A program made the translations under genes and the position numbers. From the NCBI RefSeq assembly GCF_900184995.1, contig NZ_LT860099.1:2298332-2362331 (forward strand): a stretch of 64,000 bases of DNA, read 5' to 3'. The number at the start of each line of letters is the position of its first letter. Position 1 is the first letter of the stretch. Origin of the DNA: Konateibacter massiliensis (GTDB lineage: Bacteria; Bacillota; Clostridia; Lachnospirales; Lachnospiraceae). Positions 10,762 to 18,947 of the stretch are shown piece after piece. Under the pieces are notes generated by a model, which saw only the letters and a program-made list of their open reading frames with translations, did not search any database and was not told the origin of the DNA.

Positions 10762-12186
10762 ATGAAAAACCGAATCTACATGAAATTTATAGTTGCATAT
10801 CTGCTGTTTGGTGTTATGAGCTTTATCACCGTTGCCACTCTGACCTCTGATTTAACGCTGAACCACATAAAGGCAAACAGGGCAGAGTCGCTATACAAGG
10901 TGGCAAATATCATCGTTTCCAAATATGCCTCCGGCTTTTATAAGGGTGAGCTTTCCATCAATACATTTCATAACCACTTAGAGGCAATGGGACCTTATCT
11001 TTCCTCTACGATATGGATTGTGGATTCGGAGGGAAAAATCATTATCAACTCTCAGGAAACTACCGTTTCGGAGAGCCCTATTGTAATTCCGAATTTTGAC
11101 CCGACAATCTCCGGAAGCAGCTACTATCAGACAGGAAATTTTTATGGCATGTTTGACGAGAGCATGCTGAGCGTAATCAGCCCGATTACCTCGAACTACA
11201 AAATTAAGGGCTATCTTGTGATTCTCACGCCGATGAATGAGATTATAGCCTCCCAGAATAAGATCTTAAACATTACCTACTATACTTTAGGCGTTATCTT
11301 TTTACTCTCCACAATCATTATGATAGCCTTCACCTTCATGGTGTATTTCCCTATACGGAAAATCACTTATGCCGCCAACGAATACGCCCACGGTAATCTG
11401 AAGTATGAGCTTGACATCCATAAGGAGGACGAAATCGGCTACCTTGCCAACACGCTGAACTATATGTCCAGCGAGCTCAGCAAAAGCGAGGAATACCAGA
11501 AAAAATTTATCGCAAATATTTCCCATGACTTTCGCTCTCCCCTCACCTCAATCAAGGGCTATATTGAGGCAATTATTGACGGGACCATTCCGCCCGAAAT
11601 GCAGGAAAAGTACTTAAATATTATTTTATTTGAGACAGAACGTCTGACCAAGCTCACAAGCAGTCTCCTGACACTGAATGATTTCAATACGAAGGGAATG
11701 CTTGAAATTTCAAACTTTGATATCAACGGAGTTATCAAGAAAACTGCTTCAACCTTCGAGGGAACATGCACGGAAAAGAAAATTTCCATTGAGCTTATCT
11801 TGACCGGCCATCATCTGTTTGTCGCTGCCGATATGAGCAAAATTCAACAGGTTATGTATAACCTGATTGACAATGCGATTAAATTCAGCCACAACAATTC
11901 GATTATCTATGTGGAAACCACGGAGAGAAACGGAAAGATTTTCGTCTCTGTGAAGGATACCGGAATTGGTATTCCTAAGGAAAGCTTGAAACGGATTTGG
12001 GAACGCTTTTATAAGAGTGATCTTTCAAGGGGAAAAGACAAACGAGGTACCGGACTCGGACTTGCCATTGTAAAAGAAATCGTGCAGGCGCACGGAGAAA
12101 ATATCAATGTAATCAGTACCGAGGGCGTCGGCTCAGAATTTATTTTTACTTTGCCACTTGCTAAGTCTTCGGGTGGAGATATGTAA
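10762..12186 (+). CDS. HAMP-domain sensor histidine kinase
   Basis: Membrane sensor kinase of 474 residues, paired with the response regulator 3 bp upstream. TM1 (8-30) and TM2 (about 170-195) flank an extracytoplasmic sensor region, followed by HAMP, the dimerization/phosphoacceptor box FIANISHDFRSPLTSIKGY, and an ATPase domain with NLIDNAIKFS, DTGIGIP and GTGLGLAIV. The signal sensed is not evident. The gene ends in the spacer carrying the nrdD promoter. Confidence 0.93.
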   Translation: MKNRIYMKFIVAYLLFGVMSFITVATLTSDLTLNHIKANRAESLYKVANIIVSKYASGFYKGELSINTFHNHLEAMGPYLSSTIWIVDSEGKIIINSQETTVSESPIVIPNFDPTISGSSYYQTGNFYGMFDESMLSVISPITSNYKIKGYLVILTPMNEIIASQNKILNITYYTLGVIFLLSTIIMIAFTFMVYFPIRKITYAANEYAHGNLKYELDIHKEDEIGYLANTLNYMSSELSKSEEYQKKFIANISHDFRSPLTSIKGYIEAIIDGTIPPEMQEKYLNIILFETERLTKLTSSLLTLNDFNTKGMLEISNFDINGVIKKTASTFEGTCTEKKISIELILTGHHLFVAADMSKIQQVMYNLIDNAIKFSHNNSIIYVETTERNGKIFVSVKDTGIGIPKESLKRIWERFYKSDLSRGKDKRGTGLGLAIVKEIVQAHGENINVISTEGVGSEFIFTLPLAKSSGGDM

Positions 12187-12216
12187 ATTTTTTTATTTCC
12201 CATATATTCTATATTT

Positions 12217-12270
12217 CCACCACATATAGTACTTTCGTTCCTTGACAAGCACTATATTTTGTATTATAGT
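12217..12270 (+). promoter_or_regulatory. nrdD promoter with two NrdR-box-like sites
   Basis: -35 TTGACA (12242-12247), 17-bp spacer, -10 TATAGT (12265-12270). A 16-bp site at 12249-12264 (GCACTATATTTTGTAT) fills the spacer and matches the NrdR palindrome (ACAC-TATATATA-GTGT) at 12 of 16 positions. A second site starts 32 bp upstream at 12217-12232 and matches at 11. Paired boxes about three helical turns apart, covering the core promoter, are the known NrdR arrangement, so repression by NrdR is inferred. Confidence 0.75.
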
Positions 12271-12332
12271 TTTAATCGTGACATATATTAAATTTTGATC
12301 ATGGTGCCCAAAAACACCTTAATTTAAATCCA

Positions 12333-12358
12333 GAAATTCACAAAATTTTGTGAATTTC
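12333..12358. promoter_or_regulatory. Perfect 26-bp palindrome in the nrdD leader
   Basis: Arms GAAATTCACAAAA / TTTTGTGAATTTC meet with no spacer, 37 bp before the nrdD ATG and downstream of the promoter. It could bind a dimeric regulator or form a stem in the mRNA leader. There is no long U-run, so it is not a standard terminator. Confidence 0.6.
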
Positions 12359-12395
12359 TTATTACGTTAATACATAAACAAAGGAGATATGGGGA

Positions 12396-14555
12396 ATGAG
12401 GATTATCAAAAGGAACGGTTCAGAGGAGACATTTGACATTAATAAAATCGTATCGGCGGTTGCCAAAGCGAGTGATTCCACCGATCAGATTACATTAAAC
12501 AAGGAACAGATTCAGGAAATTGCCGATTATGTGGAATACAAGTGTAATAAGTTAAACAGGGCTGTCTCTGTGGAAGAAATTCAGGATATGGTAGAAAACC
12601 AGATTATGGCAACAGGAGCCTTTGATTTGGCAAAGAACTATGTCCGATACCGTTATCAGCGTTCCTTAGTTCGAAAGGCAAACACAACCGACAATCGTAT
12701 TTTGTCTCTCATTGAGTGCAACAACGAGGACGTAAAGCAGGAAAATTCTAACAAGAATCCTACCGTAAACAGCGTGCAGCGCGATTACATGGCTGGTGAA
12801 GTAAGCAAGGATATTACAACAAGACTGCTTCTGACACCGGATATTGTGGAAGCCGATAAGCAGGGATTGATTCATTTCCATGATTCCGATTATTTTGCAC
12901 AGCATATGCACAACTGTGATTTGGTCAATTTGGAAGACATGCTTCAAAACGGAACCGTAATCAGCGAGACATTGATTGAGAAGCCGCATAGCTTTTCCAC
13001 CGCCTGCAATATCGCGACCCAGATTATCGCACAGGTTGCCAGCAACCAGTACGGCGGTCAGAGCATCAGTCTGGCTCATCTTGCGCCTTTTATTCAGATA
13101 TCCAGAGATAAAATCCGTGCAGAGGTGTTGGAAGAAATCCAAATGCTTGGCGGCACTGTAAGTGAAGAGACAATTCAAACAATCGTTGAAAAAAGACTTC
13201 GCAAGGAAATCATCAAGGGTGTACAGACAATTCAGTATCAGGTTATCACTCTCATGACTACAAACGGTCAGGCACCGTTTTTGACTGTGTTTATGTATCT
13301 GAATGAAGCGAAAAACGAGCAGGAGAAGAAAGATCTTGCCATTATCATAGAAGAAACACTGAAACAGAGAATCAAGGGTGTAAAAAATGAAGCCGGTGTA
13401 TGGGTAACCCCAGCATTCCCAAAACTGATTTATGTTTTGGAGGAGGACAATATAAACGAAAACTCCGAGTACTATTATTTAACCGAGATTGCCGCAAAAT
13501 GTACTGCTAAGCGTCTTGTTCCTGACTACATCTCCGAAAAGAAAATGAAGGAACTAAAAGAAGGCAACTGCTTCCCGGTAATGGGCTGCCGCAGCGCACT
13601 TAGTCCTTGGAAGGATGAGAATGGAAATTACAAATTCTACGGTCGTTTCAATCAAGGTGTCGTAACCGTAAATTTGGTTGATGTTGCTCTCTCTTCCGGT
13701 GGAAACATGGAAAAATTCTGGAACATTTTTGACGAGCGTCTTGAACTTTGCTACCGTGCTCTTATGTTGCGCCACAACCGCCTAAAAGGAACCTTATCTG
13801 ATGCCGCTCCTATTTTATGGCAAAATGGTGCTCTGGCAAGACTAAAAAAAGGCGAGACGATTGATAAACTGCTTTATGGCGGATATTCCTCAATTTCTCT
13901 CGGTTATGCCGGATTATACGAGTGTGTAAAATACATGACTGGCAACTCCCATACTAATCCGGAAGCCGAAAAATTTGCACTGGATGTTATGAAGTATATG
14001 AATACTGCCTGCGATCGTTGGAAAGAAGAAACTGATATCGCTTTTGGTATTTACGGCTCTCCGATTGAAAGTACTACCTATAAATTTGCAAAATGCCTAC
14101 AAAAGCGTTTTGGTGTTGTGAAGGGTGTGACAGATAAAAGTTATATCACAAACAGTTATCATGTCAACGTTGCGGAACCTATTGACGCCTTTGCAAAGCT
14201 CGAATTTGAATCAAAGTTTCAGGCATTGTCCACAGGCGGTGCGGTAAGCTACGTCGAGGTGCCAAACATGCAGCAAAATATCCCTGCAGTGCTTCAGGTT
14301 ATCCGCTTTATCTACGACCACATCATGTATGCGGAGTTAAATACGAAGAGTGATTACTGCCACGAATGCGGATTTGACGGAGAAATCGTAACAGTTCAGG
14401 ATGAGGAGGGCAAGCTTGTTTGGGAATGCCCGAAATGCGGAAATAGAAACCAAGATAAGATGAATGTGACACGAAGAACTTGCGGTTACATCGGAACACA
14501 ATTCTGGAATCAGGGAAGAACTCAGGAAATAAAAGAAAGGGTACTCCATCTGTAA
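12396..14555 (+). CDS. nrdD: Anaerobic ribonucleoside-triphosphate reductase (class III)
   Basis: Makes deoxyribonucleotides under anaerobiosis by a glycyl-radical mechanism. The 719 residues have an N-terminal ATP-cone (1-90, MRIIKRNGSEETFD), the catalytic barrel, a C-terminal zinc site (CHECGF ... CPKCGN) and the radical glycine in RRTCGYIG about 25 residues from the end. AAAGGAGATA precedes the ATG. It is followed after one base by its activase gene nrdG, a standard operon. Regulation by NrdR is suggested by the promoter. Confidence 0.97.
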   Translation: MRIIKRNGSEETFDINKIVSAVAKASDSTDQITLNKEQIQEIADYVEYKCNKLNRAVSVEEIQDMVENQIMATGAFDLAKNYVRYRYQRSLVRKANTTDNRILSLIECNNEDVKQENSNKNPTVNSVQRDYMAGEVSKDITTRLLLTPDIVEADKQGLIHFHDSDYFAQHMHNCDLVNLEDMLQNGTVISETLIEKPHSFSTACNIATQIIAQVASNQYGGQSISLAHLAPFIQISRDKIRAEVLEEIQMLGGTVSEETIQTIVEKRLRKEIIKGVQTIQYQVITLMTTNGQAPFLTVFMYLNEAKNEQEKKDLAIIIEETLKQRIKGVKNEAGVWVTPAFPKLIYVLEEDNINENSEYYYLTEIAAKCTAKRLVPDYISEKKMKELKEGNCFPVMGCRSALSPWKDENGNYKFYGRFNQGVVTVNLVDVALSSGGNMEKFWNIFDERLELCYRALMLRHNRLKGTLSDAAPILWQNGALARLKKGETIDKLLYGGYSSISLGYAGLYECVKYMTGNSHTNPEAEKFALDVMKYMNTACDRWKEETDIAFGIYGSPIESTTYKFAKCLQKRFGVVKGVTDKSYITNSYHVNVAEPIDAFAKLEFESKFQALSTGGAVSYVEVPNMQQNIPAVLQVIRFIYDHIMYAELNTKSDYCHECGFDGEIVTVQDEEGKLVWECPKCGNRNQDKMNVTRRTCGYIGTQFWNQGRTQEIKERVLHL

Positions 14556-14556
14556 T

Positions 14557-15084
14557 ATGAACTACGGAGAAATAAAAAAATATGATATTGCCAACGGTGA
14601 GGGTGTACGGGTATCTTTGTTTGTTTCAGGCTGCACGCATAAGTGCAAGGGCTGTTTTAATGAAGAGACTTGGAATTTCCTCCATGGAAATCCCTTCACC
14701 GAGGAAACGGAAAAAGAACTTCTGGAAGCTTTGTCCAAAAGCTATATTAACGGCTTATCTCTCCTTGGCGGAGAACCATTCGAGCCTCAAAACCAGAAAG
14801 TGCTGCTTTCCCTTTTGAGGAAGGTACGGCAGACATTTCCAAATAAAAATATCTGGTGCTATACCGGCTATCTCTTTGACAAAGAATTGTTAAGTGAGAG
14901 TCGCGCCAGATGTGAATATACCGATGATATGCTCGGATTGATTGATGTTTTGGTGGATGGTGAATTCGTCCAAGCGCAAAAGGATATTACACTTTCCTTT
15001 CGGGGCTCCGCCAATCAAAGAATTATTGATGTGAAGGCTTCGCTTGAAGCCGGAACAGTTAAGCTGTTTGAGCTGTCTTCATAG
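14557..15084 (+). CDS. nrdG: Anaerobic ribonucleotide reductase activating protein
   Basis: Radical-SAM activase that installs the glycyl radical on NrdD. In its 175 residues the 4Fe-4S motif CTHKCKGCFN (CxxxCxxC) is near residue 26, followed by the SAM-binding SLLGGEPF block. Length is usual for NrdG. It starts one base after the nrdD stop, consistent with translational coupling. Confidence 0.95.
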   Translation: MNYGEIKKYDIANGEGVRVSLFVSGCTHKCKGCFNEETWNFLHGNPFTEETEKELLEALSKSYINGLSLLGGEPFEPQNQKVLLSLLRKVRQTFPNKNIWCYTGYLFDKELLSESRARCEYTDDMLGLIDVLVDGEFVQAQKDITLSFRGSANQRIIDVKASLEAGTVKLFELSS

Positions 15085-15142
15085 ATATGTCGGACTAATC
15101 ATTTATGGGTATTGGTGCTTTTGAACACCTGTTTAATATAGG

Positions 15143-15177
15143 AACGGGAAGAAAGTGATAATCGCTTTCTTCCCGTT
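15143..15177 (+). terminator. Hairpin terminator after nrdG
   Basis: A perfect 13-bp stem AACGGGAAGAAAG / CTTTCTTCCCGTT with a 9-nt loop lies 58 bp after the nrdG stop. The following U-tract is weak (TGTCCTTTAT). It sits between convergent genes and probably ends nrdDG transcription. Confidence 0.75.
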
Positions 15178-15183
15178 TGTCCT

Positions 15184-16026
15184 TTATATTAAGAAAAGAT
15201 TATAAAGAACTATGATATGTAAAGGGTAAAAGAAATAAAAGAAATATTTTTGTTTTTTCCCCTGCTTATGATTGTAGCACAATAGAAAAGGCAAGGAAAA
15301 TATCATCATCCATTGAAAGTTTTCCAAAAAAGGATTTCCACCTACATCCATCTGCCCTATTCCTAAGAGCCAAAGCATATAATCTAATACTTCATAGAGA
15401 ATATGAAATCCTTTAAATCGAATAAGTCCCAAGGACATTCCAATGATTGATGTAGTCATCAGAAAGAAAAGTAAGGAATCAAATAAAAGAAAACTGATTA
15501 CTAACTTCCAATTATTTCTTTTATATAAATAAAAGATAATTCCTAGCAGAACATAAATAATACCTCCTTCTAAATTAAATAGATTCCCAAGTAACGCAGG
15601 AATAATATAAATAATAAGTCCTGAATTTACATCATAGTCAGCATTTCCTAGCAAAATCGGAATTAATATAGTGATTATCTGCCACAAAACATATGCCGTT
15701 ACATAATAGTAGTGTTTTTCTTTTGTTCTGCAAATTTCAAATAAATACAATAACAAACATATTGAAAACAATGTCCTAAAAAAATTATTTGGAATATCAT
15801 ATGTGCTCTGTATAAATGCCATTACGATACTGGCTATATACATACGTAATAAATATTTCTTTTTGCTATGCGTATACTCAAAACTCCATACACAGCAAAA
15901 TAAAAATATAGGAGCCGATGATCTGCCTATCCATCTCAAAATAATTGGTGCATTAGGAACAAACTCCCCTATATGGTCTATAACCATCAGTATCAACGCC
16001 AGCCATTTTAACTTGTTACTACTCAA
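15184..16026 (-). CDS. TraX-like multi-spanning membrane protein
   Basis: 280 residues with about eight hydrophobic segments. The opening (KWLALILMVIDHIGEF, then LRWIGRSSAPIFLFCC) matches the TraX family, named from the F-plasmid pilin acetylase and related to membrane acyltransferases. The acceptor is unknown. The start is a TTG at 16026, eight bases after the stop of the secreted-protein gene upstream and without a strong ribosome site, suggesting coupling. This pairing makes it a candidate modifier or partner of that protein, which is only a guess. Confidence 0.75.
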   Translation of the reverse strand: MSSNKLKWLALILMVIDHIGEFVPNAPIILRWIGRSSAPIFLFCCVWSFEYTHSKKKYLLRMYIASIVMAFIQSTYDIPNNFFRTLFSICLLLYLFEICRTKEKHYYYVTAYVLWQIITILIPILLGNADYDVNSGLIIYIIPALLGNLFNLEGGIIYVLLGIIFYLYKRNNWKLVISFLLFDSLLFFLMTTSIIGMSLGLIRFKGFHILYEVLDYMLWLLGIGQMDVGGNPFLENFQWMMIFSLPFLLCYNHKQGKKQKYFFYFFYPLHIIVLYNLFLI

Positions 16027-16034
16027 TTAATATC

Positions 16035-16493
16035 TTACCATTCCCATCCGCTTATTGTTCCGCTAAAGTCCATATAGCTTCCTTCAAAACTTATATAAAT
16101 TTTATCCGAGCTATTTAAATCCTCTACAGAGAAACTTGCTTCACTATTCGCTTTAACTGTTTTTGTTGCTAGTGATAATGTTTTTATTACTTTCACTTTA
16201 ACATCATAATCACTGTAATTTTTTACTGTTACTGTATAATTTTCATTTCCAGTAAACTTATAGCTAGTATATAATGTCTGATAATTGGATGTACCTGAAA
16301 AAGTATAATCACCTTTTGTACTTGTATTCCATGTTTGGGTGGGTTTACTTGTACCTTGAATAGATATCTGTCCTTCAGGAATAGTTGGTGATACACCATT
16401 ATATACTTCAGTTTTTTCAGAAGCAAAAGCAACACTTGGTGATACAACAAACATTAATGCTATCAAGGTTATAATGCTAAGAATTCTTTTCAT
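16035..16493 (-). CDS. Small secreted protein of unknown function
   Basis: I do not recognise a family. 152 residues: a clear signal peptide (MKRILSIITLIALMFVV, cleavage near AFA-SE at 25/26), then a Thr/Ser/Tyr-rich mature region with alternating hydrophobic residues, suggesting a small beta-sandwich (SNYQTLYTSYKFTGNENY). No cysteines. GGAGG lies 10 nt before the ATG. Transcription probably comes from the repeat-bearing promoter at 16655-16723, giving a leader of about 155 nt in which I see no ORF. The TraX-like gene follows after 8 bases. Confidence 0.7.
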   Translation of the reverse strand: MKRILSIITLIALMFVVSPSVAFASEKTEVYNGVSPTIPEGQISIQGTSKPTQTWNTSTKGDYTFSGTSNYQTLYTSYKFTGNENYTVTVKNYSDYDVKVKVIKTLSLATKTVKANSEASFSVEDLNSSDKIYISFEGSYMDFSGTISGWEW

Positions 16494-16654
16494 GATAATA
16501 TTCCTCCAATCTCGGTATAATCTCTAGTGTCCTTTTTACCTTTTTTAGGTGACAACTCTCTAAAGATTATTATTCAATTATATTCTTAATCTTAAAAATA
16601 TAATAAAGTATAGTTACATTGCAGAAAAAATATCGATATCTTTCAACACTTATA

Positions 16655-16723
16655 ATGATAACACTACTTTTTAATTTTTCAATAGGATTAGTTTGAATGG
16701 ACGTTTTGAAGGCGTGAATGGAC
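16655..16723 (-). promoter_or_regulatory. Promoter with 21-bp-period direct repeats (LytTR-like), unit 1
   Basis: On the minus strand: GTCCATTC (16716-16723), a second GTCCATTC (16695-16702) with start-to-start period 21, then exactly 12 bp, -35 TTGAAA (16677-16682), 16-bp spacer, and -10 TATCAT (16655-16660). The repeat spacing is that of LytTR-domain regulators (9-bp repeats, 12-bp gap), and AACGTCCAT fits their loose consensus at 8 of 9. The same layout recurs at 18763-18832. The regulator is not in the window. Confidence 0.6.
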
Positions 16724-16815
16724 AAACTGTTCCATTTTAGGTTTAAAGGGGTTTTAGAGGGGTATTCAACAGTGGATGTCAGGGGAGAAACATTTGTGAC
16801 CTAAAAACTATCTTA

Positions 16816-17106
16816 TTATTTTCCCATACTTACACCATAAATCAACTGATTATTTTCTTCATTACAAACAAGCATCATTTCCAGTCCGCCGTCTAGTAAT
16901 TTACCTTTTGGATATATATAATACATTTTCTGTTGTCCATCTATTGCCTCGCTAAAATACCTTTCAAAAACCCCATCTTTCTCTACTTTATATTCCTCAT
17001 CAGACAAGGTATATTCAAGTGATATAATGAGATTATCGTCAAATATATTGCTTTCCTTCCTGCATACTAATGCTGTTTTTTGGGGATCTCGTTTTTTTCT
17101 TGCCAT
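16816..17106 (-). CDS. Hypothetical protein, 96 aa
   Basis: Not recognised. A soluble, charged protein with basic N-terminus (MARKKRDPQK) and no signal peptide or TM segment. The ATG at 17106 has AAAGGA about 11 nt upstream, slightly far. A minus-strand terminator-like hairpin with a U6 tract lies just upstream (17164-17203), so the gene probably has its own promoter. It sits in the AT-rich island between the two secreted-protein units. Confidence 0.5.
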   Translation of the reverse strand: MARKKRDPQKTALVCRKESNIFDDNLIISLEYTLSDEEYKVEKDGVFERYFSEAIDGQQKMYYIYPKGKLLDGGLEMMLVCNEENNQLIYGVSMGK

Positions 17107-17163
17107 AGTATTTTAGTCCTTTTATTTTTTCTTTGTTTAGTTTACCATACCTTGACAGAAAAA

Positions 17164-17203
17164 AGAGCGTGTAGTTCATTTAGTTCTTGAACTTACACAC
17201 TCT
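17164..17203 (-). terminator. Minus-strand hairpin with U6 tract
   Basis: Arms AGAGTGTGTAAGTTC / GAACTACACGCTCT (minus-strand sense, small bulges) followed by TTTTTT. It would stop transcripts coming from the remnant region before the 96-aa gene. Confidence 0.6.
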
Positions 17204-17292
17204 ATTTTACACTCCCTAGACATTATACATATTTTGTCCACTTTTTTAACAAAACAAAAAATTATATTAACTACTAAATATTAACTACTATG

Positions 17293-17320
17293 AAAAATGA
17301 CTCTTCCTGGAGTCATTTTT
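17293..17320. terminator. Bidirectional hairpin terminator
   Basis: An 11-bp stem AAAAATGACTC / GAGTCATTTTT with a 6-nt loop; A/T runs on each side give U-tracts on both strands. It lies in the gene-free part of the island. Confidence 0.65.
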
Positions 17321-17467
17321 TATTTGACAAATAATTAATCAAATACTAAAATCTCCATTAATTATTGACTAAGATTTTCCCTCTTAGTAGGTTAGTCTAT
17401 ATTCTTAAAATACATCTGTATATTCCAGATAAATATTGAACACTTCACAATGCAATGGATATGATAA

Positions 17468-17689
17468 TTATATCATACAATATTTAATTATAAAAGTTAT
17501 AAAATCCAGATTTTCTTTCATTCTTAAATGTATCTCTTTAGCGGAAGAGACCTGCTTTACATATATAAAATTGTCTATTTAGAATAATGAACCAAAGAAT
17601 AGTTTAAATTTATTTTTTCCATATGATGTCATAGATATTTTTTTTCTCATATAATCCAAAAATTCAGGATTAACTACTAACCAGTTCAA
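17468..17689 (-). pseudogene. Remnant of a ToxN/AbiQ-like type III toxin gene
   Basis: Reading the minus strand from a TTG at 17689 gives 36 codons (VNPEFLDYMRKK ... YGKNKFKLFFGSLF), a TAA at 17579-17581, then 36 more codons in the same frame (IDNFIYVKQVSSAKEIHLRM, KENLDFI) to a TAA at 17468. The pieces line up with the N-terminal half of ToxN/AbiQ endoribonucleases: a residue-10 Y/F-L-x-Y-M segment, the RPFIG-type strand, then the family's Y-x-x-PLSSPKxKH block followed by MKxxLDFI. The key PLSSPK reads QVSSAK. An AGAGAG site precedes the TTG, and a hairpin (17714-17743) sits where a type III antitoxin terminator would be, but no antitoxin repeat array remains. Confidence 0.65.
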
Positions 17690-17713
17690 TATTTATTTCT
17701 CTCTTATAAAACA

Positions 17714-17743
17714 ATAACCTTATTCACGAATGAATAAGGTTAT
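17714..17743 (-). terminator. Hairpin terminator after the 168-aa secreted protein gene
   Basis: A perfect 13-bp stem ATAACCTTATTCA / TGAATAAGGTTAT with a 4-nt loop, 65 bp after the stop at 17809; minus-strand sequence continues TGTTTTA. Confidence 0.75.
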
Positions 17744-17808
17744 ATTCCTATTTAGATGATTTTAAAATAATTCGTAACATCTATAAAAACGGTTTTGGTA
17801 AGATTATT

Positions 17809-18315
17809 TTATTCTACCATTGCAAGTTCACTAGAATCTATTGAATATGTATTATATATATCACCCAAAGTTGTTGTGGTGGTATTTGACTTAATATATT
17901 TATATGTTCCATCTGTTTTTTGAATATAATAATCTGCAACAGTTTTAATAATAGTATTTGAATTAATAGCACCGGAACTACGATATTGTGTAAAAACTAT
18001 TTTAGAATTATCAGTTAATCCCGCTGTACTGATAGCTGTACTAACAGTAAAAGAACCAATTCCTGCAGCAATTGCAGCACCACCAGACAAAGCCATTGTA
18101 CCTAAAGATAATCCTGAAAATAGTAATCCTAAAGTTAAATATGTAACAGAACCCGTACAAACTCCTGTTCCAAGTTGTACCCATGTTGTTGTAGCGGTAG
18201 TAGCAACAACAGATTCTTGCAATACTGTTTTTTCAGCGGCACTCACTTTTTCCGTAGAAAACACAGCCACCACTAAAATAGAAGCTACTAATAAACTAGA
18301 AACCTTTTTTTCCAT
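17809..18315 (-). CDS. Secreted Gly/Ala-rich protein, possibly bacteriocin-like
   Basis: No family recognised. 168 residues: signal peptide (1-26, cleavage near VSA-AE), a short Thr-rich stretch, a glycine/alanine-rich hydrophobic stretch (about 46-100, e.g. LGLLFSGLSLGTMALSGG) that could insert in membranes, and a polar Tyr/Thr-rich tail (105-168). One cysteine (C53). The ATG at 18315 is 16 nt from GGAGG (18332-18336). An out-of-frame ATG at 18323 is 8 nt from it and reads only 11 codons; a -1 shift on the following A7 run would give MKKWKKKVSSLLVAS, a better signal-peptide start. It follows the two-TM protein gene and probably shares its promoter at 18763-18832. Confidence 0.65.
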   Translation of the reverse strand: MEKKVSSLLVASILVVAVFSTEKVSAAEKTVLQESVVATTATTTWVQLGTGVCTGSVTYLTLGLLFSGLSLGTMALSGGAAIAAGIGSFTVSTAISTAGLTDNSKIVFTQYRSSGAINSNTIIKTVADYYIQKTDGTYKYIKSNTTTTTLGDIYNTYSIDSSELAMVE

Positions 18316-18368
18316 TTTTTCATTACTTTAACCTCCTTATTTTTTAATTAATATTAATTATCTACCTT

Positions 18369-18581
18369 TTATTTTCTGTTTTTTAATTTTTTTTGCTTTT
18401 GAATTAGTCCTATTTCAAACACCAATAACAACATATTTATTATTATAAAATTAATCAAATTAATATTCCTAACTATTAATAATAATATTAAAAAAACCAT
18501 ACGGAGAATAGTTATAAAGAATCGTACGATTATACAAAATGTATACCACTTTTCTTTAATGTCTAATTTTCCTTTTTTCAT
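18369..18581 (-). CDS. Small membrane protein, 70 aa
   Basis: Not recognised. Two strongly hydrophobic segments (about 14-38 and 40-58) bounded by basic ends (MKKGKLDIKEK ... QKQKKLKNRK), suggesting a hairpin in the membrane. AGGAG sits 7 nt before the ATG. The 168-aa secreted-protein gene starts 53 bp downstream. Size, charge and position would suit an immunity-type partner, which is speculation. Confidence 0.6.
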   Translation of the reverse strand: MKKGKLDIKEKWYTFCIIVRFFITILRMVFLILLLIVRNINLINFIIINMLLLVFEIGLIQKQKKLKNRK

Positions 18582-18637
18582 TATTTTCTCCTTTTAACTC
18601 TTTTTTATCTATCTTTTTAAAAATCTGGAGGACTGTG

Positions 18638-18703
18638 TCACCTTATAATTTTATTTGATATTATCAAACACCTAAATAAAATCTTTGACCCTTTCATTTT
18701 CAT
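18638..18703 (-). CDS. Putative 21-residue cationic peptide ORF
   Basis: ATG at 18703 with GGAG 9 nt upstream and a TGA at 18638-18640. The peptide (MKMKGSKILF ... SNKIIR) has four Lys, two Arg, one Cys and a hydrophobic middle. It begins about 55 nt after the predicted start of transcription from the repeat-bearing promoter and precedes the 70-aa and 168-aa genes. It could be a small peptide gene, a leader ORF, or chance. Confidence 0.35.
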   Translation of the reverse strand: MKMKGSKILFRCLIISNKIIR

Positions 18704-18762
18704 GTATTTAGTCTCCATTCATATTATTTAGTTTTATATTTTTATTTGGCTCTTATACAGAA

Positions 18763-18832
18763 AACATAGCATAAATAATTTAAAATTTCAATTAAAACAG
18801 CATGAATAGTCAATCTGAGAGCATGAATGAAC
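18763..18832 (-). promoter_or_regulatory. Promoter with 21-bp-period direct repeats (LytTR-like), unit 2
   Basis: On the minus strand: GTTCATTC (18825-18832), GACTATTC (18804-18811), period exactly 21, then exactly 12 bp, -35 TTGAAA (18786-18791), 17-bp spacer, and -10 TATGTT (18763-18768). The layout and sequence parallel the site at 16655-16723, including the conserved ATTCAYGC after the first repeat. It would drive the 21-aa ORF, the 70-aa and the 168-aa genes. Confidence 0.6.
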
Positions 18833-18870
18833 AATTTAGTGTCATAACTCAAAAGTAAAACCATAAACTA

Positions 18871-18919
18871 AAATCGAGTAGAAGGCTGGTAATTACTTTA
18901 CCTGCCTTCTACTCGATTT
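18871..18919. terminator. Strong hairpin terminator after spoVT
   Basis: A 16-bp stem AAATCGAGTAGAAGGC / GCCTTCTACTCGATTT, extended inside by GGTAA/TTACC, lies 29 bp past the spoVT stop. On the minus strand it would end spoVT transcripts; it also insulates the island promoter. Confidence 0.8.
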
Positions 18920-18947
18920 ATAAGCTATAAATTGTTCTTTTTAGAAA

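What the first reader, a model, noticed from the sequence alone, without database searches (positions are those of the whole stretch)
17468..17743. Decayed ToxN/AbiQ-like type III toxin in the island
A 73-codon minus-strand frame interrupted by one TAA encodes the N-terminal half of what looks like a ToxN/AbiQ endoribonuclease (YGKNKFKLFFGSLF, then a degenerate SSPKxKH block and MKENLDFI). A perfect hairpin stands just upstream, where the terminator between antitoxin repeats and toxin normally sits. This marks the region as a former defence/mobile locus.
Basis: partly seen in the sequence, partly recalled or inferred. Interest (0 to 1): 0.5.

Follow-up and report, generated by a model that had tools for sequence, protein, structure and literature searches.

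The report
Broken remnant of a ToxN toxin gene
This stretch holds the front third to half of a dead bacterial toxin gene of the well-known ToxN/AbiQ kind, together with the kind of hairpin that normally precedes such genes but without its antitoxin RNA; it is an ordinary relic, though the same genome carries an intact relative in a prophage-like region.

Summary
Window 17692-17468 (minus strand) is a 74-codon frame with one internal TAA at 17581-17579. Read through with X, it matches Pfam ToxN_toxin (PF13958) at E 5.8e-10, 40 bits (cut-off 25), profile positions 2-67 of 159. None of 1000 shuffles came near. The closest relatives compared are 30-33% identical. The remaining ~90 profile positions were not found in any frame. 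A 13-bp hairpin with a T-rich tail ends 24 nt before the inferred start; in 27 of 34 relatives a terminator-like hairpin ends 15-35 nt before theirs. Tandem antitoxin repeats were looked for and not found. So this is a pseudogene of a type III toxin-antitoxin locus, in an AT-rich stretch beside spoVT that is nearly empty in one same-genus genome and filled with other genes in another. The relic itself is ordinary. In passing: the genome's intact ToxIN lies in a gap that splits a phage tape-measure gene. Related phages have breaks at or near the same codon, some with other defence genes behind the break, and part of them with group-I-intron-like features.

The parts
17468..17692 (-). Decayed toxN frame (pseudogene): matches ToxN profile positions 2-67 of 159; inferred former start TTG at 17689-17687 (aligned with Met1 of the closest relatives)
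17579..17581 (-). In-frame TAA stop inside the toxN remnant
17714..17743 (-). 13-bp hairpin plus T-rich tail; probable former ToxI/toxN intergenic terminator (or terminator of the upstream 168-aa gene)
17744..17808 (-). 65-nt stretch where antitoxin repeats would be expected; no repeat detected
17001..17467 (-). Stretch downstream where the C-terminal part of ToxN should lie; no significant ToxN similarity in any of six frames

Best explanation
A dead relic of a chromosomal ToxIN/AbiQ-type type III toxin-antitoxin locus. Shown: the N-terminal ~70 codons of a ToxN toxin gene remain, with a stop codon inside them; the C-terminal part was not found; a terminator-like hairpin stands at the usual place before the toxin; no tandem antitoxin repeats are recognisable. 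Inferred: when intact, ToxN was an endoribonuclease held inactive by a repeat RNA made upstream of the hairpin, the hairpin limiting read-through into the toxin gene. Once the toxin was broken, nothing kept the antitoxin repeats and they were lost. No present function is expected. It is a footprint of a locus acquired at a variable chromosomal site beside spoVT.
For: Pfam PF13958 5.8e-10, only Pfam family hit; one of two places over the cut-off in the whole genome, 0 of 14 control genomes; independent profile 27.4 bits, 0 of 1000 shuffles reach it, best 8.0; blastp E below 1e-5 (in a database of just these sequences) to 14 of 27 picked relatives, best L055 33% over 66 columns, E 3e-10; all 4 plasmid hits annotated ToxN/AbiQ; hairpin 3' end 24 nt before the start, against 15-35 nt in 27 of 34 relatives examined; variable site in the genus. 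Broken copies are common: in 61 genomes searched, 7 of 28 match rows carry stops inside, this relic being one of the 7 and one of the 7 being under the cut-off.
Against: NCBIfam and PADLOC (which holds an AbiQ model) give no match at E 0.1; PDB sequences none; phage records none; the genome-contig scan with the fragment confirmed no relative among 154 pattern matches. No antitoxin repeats. The hairpin could equally terminate the upstream 168-aa gene. 5 of 34 relatives show no hairpin by the same test and 2 have it further away. The start position rests on alignment, not on a recognised ribosome-binding site.
Confidence: 0.93

Rival explanations
1. The hairpin has nothing to do with ToxIN: it is the terminator of the upstream secreted-protein gene (17809-18315, minus), and the toxin remnant landed behind it by chance.
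For: The hairpin starts 65 nt after that gene's stop codon, a normal terminator distance (for the gene, for the hairpin). No antitoxin repeats lie between the two.
Against: Its distance to the inferred toxin start (24 nt) is within the 15-35 nt seen in 27 of 34 relatives.
Confidence: 0.35
2. The resemblance to ToxN is a chance or low-complexity match in AT-rich DNA.
For: The region is 27-28% G+C; of the four protein-family libraries only Pfam gives a significant match.
Against: 0 of 1000 dinucleotide shuffles come near the score (best 8.0 against 27.4 bits); the match is collinear over ~66 residues and needs only one stop read through.
Confidence: 0.02
3. The TAA is an assembly or sequencing error, or the short frame is still translated as a truncated protein with a role of its own.
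For: There is only one internal stop, and the residues SSAK of the active-site block are kept.
Against: Apart from the stop, the C-terminal ~90 profile positions were not found in any frame, and no antitoxin repeats are found. No close second copy was found in 397 genomes with which to test for purifying selection.
Confidence: 0.04

Closest known systems
ToxN/AbiQ family toxin of type III toxin-antitoxin systems (Pfam PF13958; ToxIN of Pectobacterium, AbiQ of Lactococcus)
   Same: N-terminal third to half of the toxin, collinear, with the S-S-x-K block; hairpin at the usual distance before the toxin
   Different: Internal stop, C-terminal part not found, no recognisable antitoxin repeats: not a working system
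   Same: L055, L058 and L060 are the best blastp partners among the 27 compared (30-33% identity, best E 3e-10); same start context (Met-Asp-Trp against Leu-Asn-Trp)
   Different: Full-length; in L058, L060 and L078-L084 two 36-nt repeats precede a G+C-rich terminator; the held DNA before L055 is only 99 nt
Intact ToxIN in the same genome (G000:C7:239663-240121; L006 5622-6206 minus), in a stretch identical to an IMG/VR viral record
   Same: Same Pfam family (5.9e-35) and PADLOC AbiQ (8.8e-29)
   Different: No blastp match to the relic at E 10, different site, terminator-like hairpin and repeat-like units present

Membership tests
ToxIN/AbiQ type III toxin-antitoxin system | Toxin protein of the ToxN family | tested here: met
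   PF13958 5.8e-10, over the cut-off, positions 2-67 of 159; own profile and 1000 shuffles. NCBIfam and PADLOC without a match
ToxIN/AbiQ type III toxin-antitoxin system | Complete open toxin gene (~160-190 aa) | tested here: not met
   Internal TAA; C-terminal part not found in six frames of 17001-17760
ToxIN/AbiQ type III toxin-antitoxin system | Rho-independent terminator-like palindrome directly before the toxin (criterion given in PMC5086642, passages read) | tested here: met
   13-bp hairpin with T-rich tail ending 24 nt before the inferred start; 27 of 34 relatives have one ending 15-35 nt before theirs. Whether it served ToxI is not shown
ToxIN/AbiQ type III toxin-antitoxin system | Tandem ~34-36-nt antitoxin repeats upstream of the terminator (PMC5086642, passages) | tested here: not met
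   No direct repeat of 14 nt or more in 17690-18370; best alignment to 11 distinct repeat units of 10 relatives is reached or beaten by 192 of 300 shuffles; Rfam gives nothing relevant in 12 kb around
ToxIN/AbiQ type III toxin-antitoxin system | Active-site residues (ToxN_Pa Tyr29, Lys33, Thr52, Ser53, Lys55; PMC5086642 passage) | tested here: inconclusive
   S-S-A-K is aligned with the S/T-S-x-K block of relatives; the numbering was mapped by recall, ToxN_Pa itself was not aligned
ToxIN/AbiQ type III toxin-antitoxin system | Endoribonuclease toxicity neutralised by the RNA | not testable with these tools
   Needs bench work; not expected for this relic

The most novel reading that the evidence does not exclude
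For the relic itself nothing novel is left open beyond reuse of its hairpin as a terminator by the neighbouring orphan secreted-protein gene. The most novel reading along the same trail concerns the genome's intact ToxIN. In many Lachnospiraceae-type phages the tape-measure gene is interrupted after the same codon by group-I-intron-like elements that hold from no sizeable gene (~0.8 kb, L111) to ~16 kb of cargo (L087), and this cargo includes anti-phage genes (ToxIN here; GmrSD/NsnA-like in others). That would make an intron inside an essential late phage gene a fixed landing site for defence islands.
Probability: 0.4. Interest if true: 0.7.

Novelty: new member of a known kind. Interest (0 to 1): 0.17.

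Why it matters
By itself it matters little: a broken copy of a known toxin family, probably unannotated since NCBIfam does not see it, that records the past presence of a type III toxin-antitoxin locus at a variable chromosomal site. It shows that such relics can be found from raw sequence, and that here the antitoxin repeats as well as the toxin's C-terminal part are no longer recognisable. Following it up led to the genome's intact ToxIN, which lies inside a split phage tape-measure gene; that side observation is the part worth pursuing.

Tried and rejected
Antitoxin remnant: by eye the 65 nt before the hairpin resemble a repeat unit of L060 (TAGAT..TTA..AATC); the alignment score is no better than shuffles (192 of 300 at or above), and other stretches of the island score higher, so it was rejected. 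C-terminal toxin remnants in another frame: none significant. Rfam search for ToxI in 12 kb around the relic and around the intact copy: nothing relevant. Phage records and genome contigs with the fragment: no match. Relatives of the neighbouring 168-aa protein: 1 of 195 genomes, that one being its own, and 0 of 96 pattern matches in viral contigs confirmed. A MazF/Kid-type toxin was considered; Pfam shows no such match.

For the tape-measure gap: Rfam finds no intron in L006, L087 and L088 or L097. A simple P1 test on 16 chosen loci finds a splice-site pairing of 6 or more bases in 9, but single-locus shuffles reach the same length in 37 to 185 of 500, so only the matched changes between loci speak for it; 7 of 16 (G000, L105, L106, L108, L112, L114, L116) show no such pairing. 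Loci whose frame ends in KNFA, KNYG or similar (L098, L107, L118, L123, L124) were not put to that test. Annotated phages gave no help: 172 records match the first half, none over 80% of it, and the ten listed stop at residue 601 or 641, short of the break; 3 match the second half. Second-half relatives are in 5 of 145 related genomes, this one included.

Full report
WHAT WAS CLAIMED AND WHAT IS THERE. The minus-strand frame exists as described: after a TAA at 17695-17693 the frame runs from 17692 to a TAA at 17470-17468, with one internal TAA at 17581-17579, that is 73 sense codons and one stop. Its reading with X at the stop contains YGKNKFKLFFGSLF, SSAKEIH and MKENLDFI. The hairpin at 17743-17714 has 13 pairs, three of them G-C, a 4-nt loop and the tail TGTTTTAT; the 141 nt around it fold with z -3.4, 1 of 200 shuffles folding at least as well.

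IS IT TOXN? Pfam gives one family at E 0.1, PF13958 ToxN_toxin, E 5.8e-10, 40 bits against a cut-off of 25, protein residues 3-66, profile 2-67 of 159. A search of the whole 4.26-Mb genome with PF13958 lists 5 places at E up to 10; two are over the cut-off: this one (1.1e-8, one TAA inside) and an intact gene at C7:239663-240121 (5.9e-35); 0 of 14 control genomes match. tblastn against plasmids finds 4 records, all Lactococcus, all annotated ToxN/AbiQ, 38% identity, E 1e-3. Among 397 genomes of the family, 20 (this one included) match at E up to 0.01; the best eight others (L055-L062) lie in open frames of 184-267 aa. I picked 27 ToxN proteins from the 28 rows and the 20 rows, some of them truncated; 14 of the 27 match the relic at E below 1e-5 (in a database of just these), best L055 at 33% identity over 66 columns, 3e-10. 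A profile from the 23 of these longer than 150 aa, built without the relic, scores the 760-nt stretch at 27.4 bits, and 19.5 bits when the whole window frame is scanned; the best of 1000 dinucleotide-preserving shuffles of the stretch is 8.0. Results on the other side: NCBIfam and PADLOC find nothing at E 0.1, PHROGs only phrog_9764 of unknown function at 0.034, PDB sequences nothing at E 1, phage records nothing, genome contigs nothing. I take these as lower sensitivity to a half-length, decayed sequence; this is inference.

HOW BROKEN IS IT? Besides the internal stop, no significant trace of the last ~90 profile positions was found in any frame of 17001-17760. The closest relatives begin Met-Asp-Trp; the relic has Leu(TTG)-Asn-Trp there, so the start may be TTG or a changed ATG. 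The S-S-A-K of the relic lies in the column of the S/T-S-x-K block; the review PMC5086642 (passages read) lists Thr52, Ser53 and Lys55 among the ToxN_Pa active-site residues; the equivalence is my mapping, not an alignment with ToxN_Pa.

TERMINATOR AND ANTITOXIN. PMC5086642 (passages) gives the layout: tandem repeats, Rho-independent terminator, toxin. I measured the best terminator-like hairpin within 150 nt of the start in 34 relatives (a 35th, L008, had too little upstream DNA) and in the window: 29 of the 34 have one, in 27 its 3' end lies 15-35 nt before the start, in 2 further away, and in 5 none was found; eight of the 27 (L078-L085) have nearly the same upstream sequence. In the window it lies at 24 nt. 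The hairpin also begins 65 nt behind the stop codon of the 168-aa gene (17809-18315), so it may end that gene's transcript; the two readings do not exclude each other. Repeats: ten relatives gave 11 distinct 36-nt units; the best alignment of these to the 123 nt before the inferred start is matched or beaten by 192 of 300 shuffles, no direct repeat is found in 17690-18370, and Rfam gives nothing relevant. The antitoxin is gone or beyond recognition.

SURROUNDINGS. The stretch 16-19 kb is 27-31% G+C in 2-kb windows against roughly 38-46% over most of the window, with one other dip to about 33-35% at 55-58 kb. On one side lies spoVT (SpoVT_C 9.8e-49), on the other a TraX-like gene (PF05857 7.8e-21). 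In same-genus genome G001 spoVT and a gene matching window 10762-12186 (a histidine kinase by my reading, no family search) lie 160 bp apart; in G002 9.6 kb of other genes separate them, which I read as including a lanthipeptide-type synthetase and an ABC transporter (by recall, no family search); in the window 6.8 kb lies between them. The site is thus variable in the genus. The 168-aa neighbour has no relative in 194 other genomes and no Pfam, NCBIfam or PADLOC family (PHROGs only 0.032 and 0.053).

MECHANISM. The best reading is a pseudogene of a ToxIN locus. When whole, it would have worked as type III systems do (RNA repeats holding an endoribonuclease, PMC5086642 passages); this is inferred from family membership. 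Loss of the antitoxin is tolerable only after loss of the toxin, so the toxin was probably broken first (inference). Broken copies are common: 7 of the 28 match rows in 61 genomes have stops inside, this relic included. A literature search for ToxN together with pseudogene found 3 papers, seen in the listing only; I make no claim of novelty for the relic.

SIDE TRAIL. The intact ToxN lies between two halves of a tape-measure gene (first half PhageMin_Tail 2.5e-24); the gene and the gap are letter for letter in a 142-kb IMG/VR viral record (L086). Homologues of the first half in other loci end at KNVG or close to it and then carry short unrelated tails: L097 (same sequence as L087), L099, L100, L103, L104, L105; L098 ends in KNFA. 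Of 25 further loci taken, 24 matched when re-examined; in 12 of them, this genome's own (L115) included, a match reaching query position 656-657 is followed by a stop within 14 residues: L106-L109, L111, L112, L114-L116, L119, L122, L124. L113, L120, L126 and L128 instead run on for about 480-500 residues to the end of the fetched DNA (whole frames 2338, 2481, 1372 and 2397 aa), though only L128's match reaches position 655, those of the other three stopping at 635-648; the other 8 are shorter, end elsewhere or are cut by a contig end. L113 holds relatives of both halves in one frame. The gap between halves is about 2.0 kb in G000, 2.8 kb in L103, 6.2 kb in L105, 0.8 kb in L111, where no frame of the gap exceeds 85 codons, and 15.7 kb in the record of L087; for L100 it would be about 10.6 kb if the match is on the same contig. 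Cargo: NsnA/GmrSD-like in L097 (2.9e-35) and L103 (4.8e-31), AbiQ in G000 (8.8e-29); 6 kb behind the break in L098 a capP-like IrrE-domain protein (1.6e-16), the second half not being located there; 6 of the 10 proteins given to PADLOC had no match. L088 carries GmrSD_N behind the break, its second half not found in that 32-kb record. Intron signs: the last six exon bases pair with a downstream site, U opposite G at the break, in L097, L099, L100, L103, L104, L119 (GTCGGT/GCCGAC), L111 (CTCGGT/GCCGAG), L122 (GTAGGT/GCCTGC) and, with more G-U pairs, L109; the changes in L111 and L122 are matched on both sides. The pairing is absent in 7 of the 16 loci tested, G000 among them. That U-G pair is a hallmark of group I introns by recall. 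Rfam finds no intron in L006, L087, L088 or L097. Papers: searches for group I intron with tape measure (15 of 32 listed), with toxin-antitoxin and defense (10 of 18), and tape measure with intron, anti-phage and prophage (10 of 10) were seen as listings only; no listed title is on this, but I cannot say it is unreported.

VERDICT. Finding confirmed, interpretation supported apart from the antitoxin; ordinary relic, low interest. The side trail deserves its own study.

Noticed in passing
L006 162-8997 (G000:C7 ~234,160-243,000); L087/L097, L088/L104, L099, L100, L103, L105, L111, L113: Phage tape-measure gene interrupted at or near the same codon in many Lachnospiraceae-type phages; gaps measured from ~0.8 to ~15.7 kb; some carry anti-phage genes (ToxIN in this genome, GmrSD/NsnA-like in others). 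In 9 of 16 loci tested the exon end pairs with a downstream site with U opposite G, as in group I introns, with matched changes in two; 7 of 16 do not, and Rfam finds no intron.
   Followed up: partly
L006 5622-6206 minus (G000:C7:239663-240121): Intact ToxN/AbiQ gene (PF13958 5.9e-35; PADLOC AbiQ 8.8e-29) with a hairpin at -50 to -25 and two to three ~39-nt repeat-like units upstream (read by eye), in a stretch identical to a 142-kb IMG/VR viral record.
   Followed up: partly
window 12187-18947; L075 5091-5250; L076 5355-14982: The site between spoVT and a histidine-kinase-like gene is variable in the genus: 160 bp in G001, 9.6 kb with lanthipeptide-synthetase-like and ABC-transporter-like genes (named by recall) in G002, 6.8 kb here.
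   Followed up: partly
window 17809-18315 and 16035-16493, minus: Two small proteins with signal-peptide-like starts (by eye) and no convincing family; the 168-aa one has no relative in 194 other genomes of the group. Possibly secreted bacteriocin-like products.
   Followed up: partly
window 18871-18919: Near-perfect 22-nt inverted repeat (95%, 5-nt loop) just downstream of spoVT; a possible terminator, although the terminator scan did not list it.
   Followed up: no
L009, L021, L028, L030, L032: Further ToxN matches over the cut-off with internal stops in other genomes of the family and order: decay of this family is common.
   Followed up: no
window 15184-16026, minus: TraX-like membrane protein gene (PF05857 7.8e-21) at the edge of the AT-rich stretch.
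   Followed up: no
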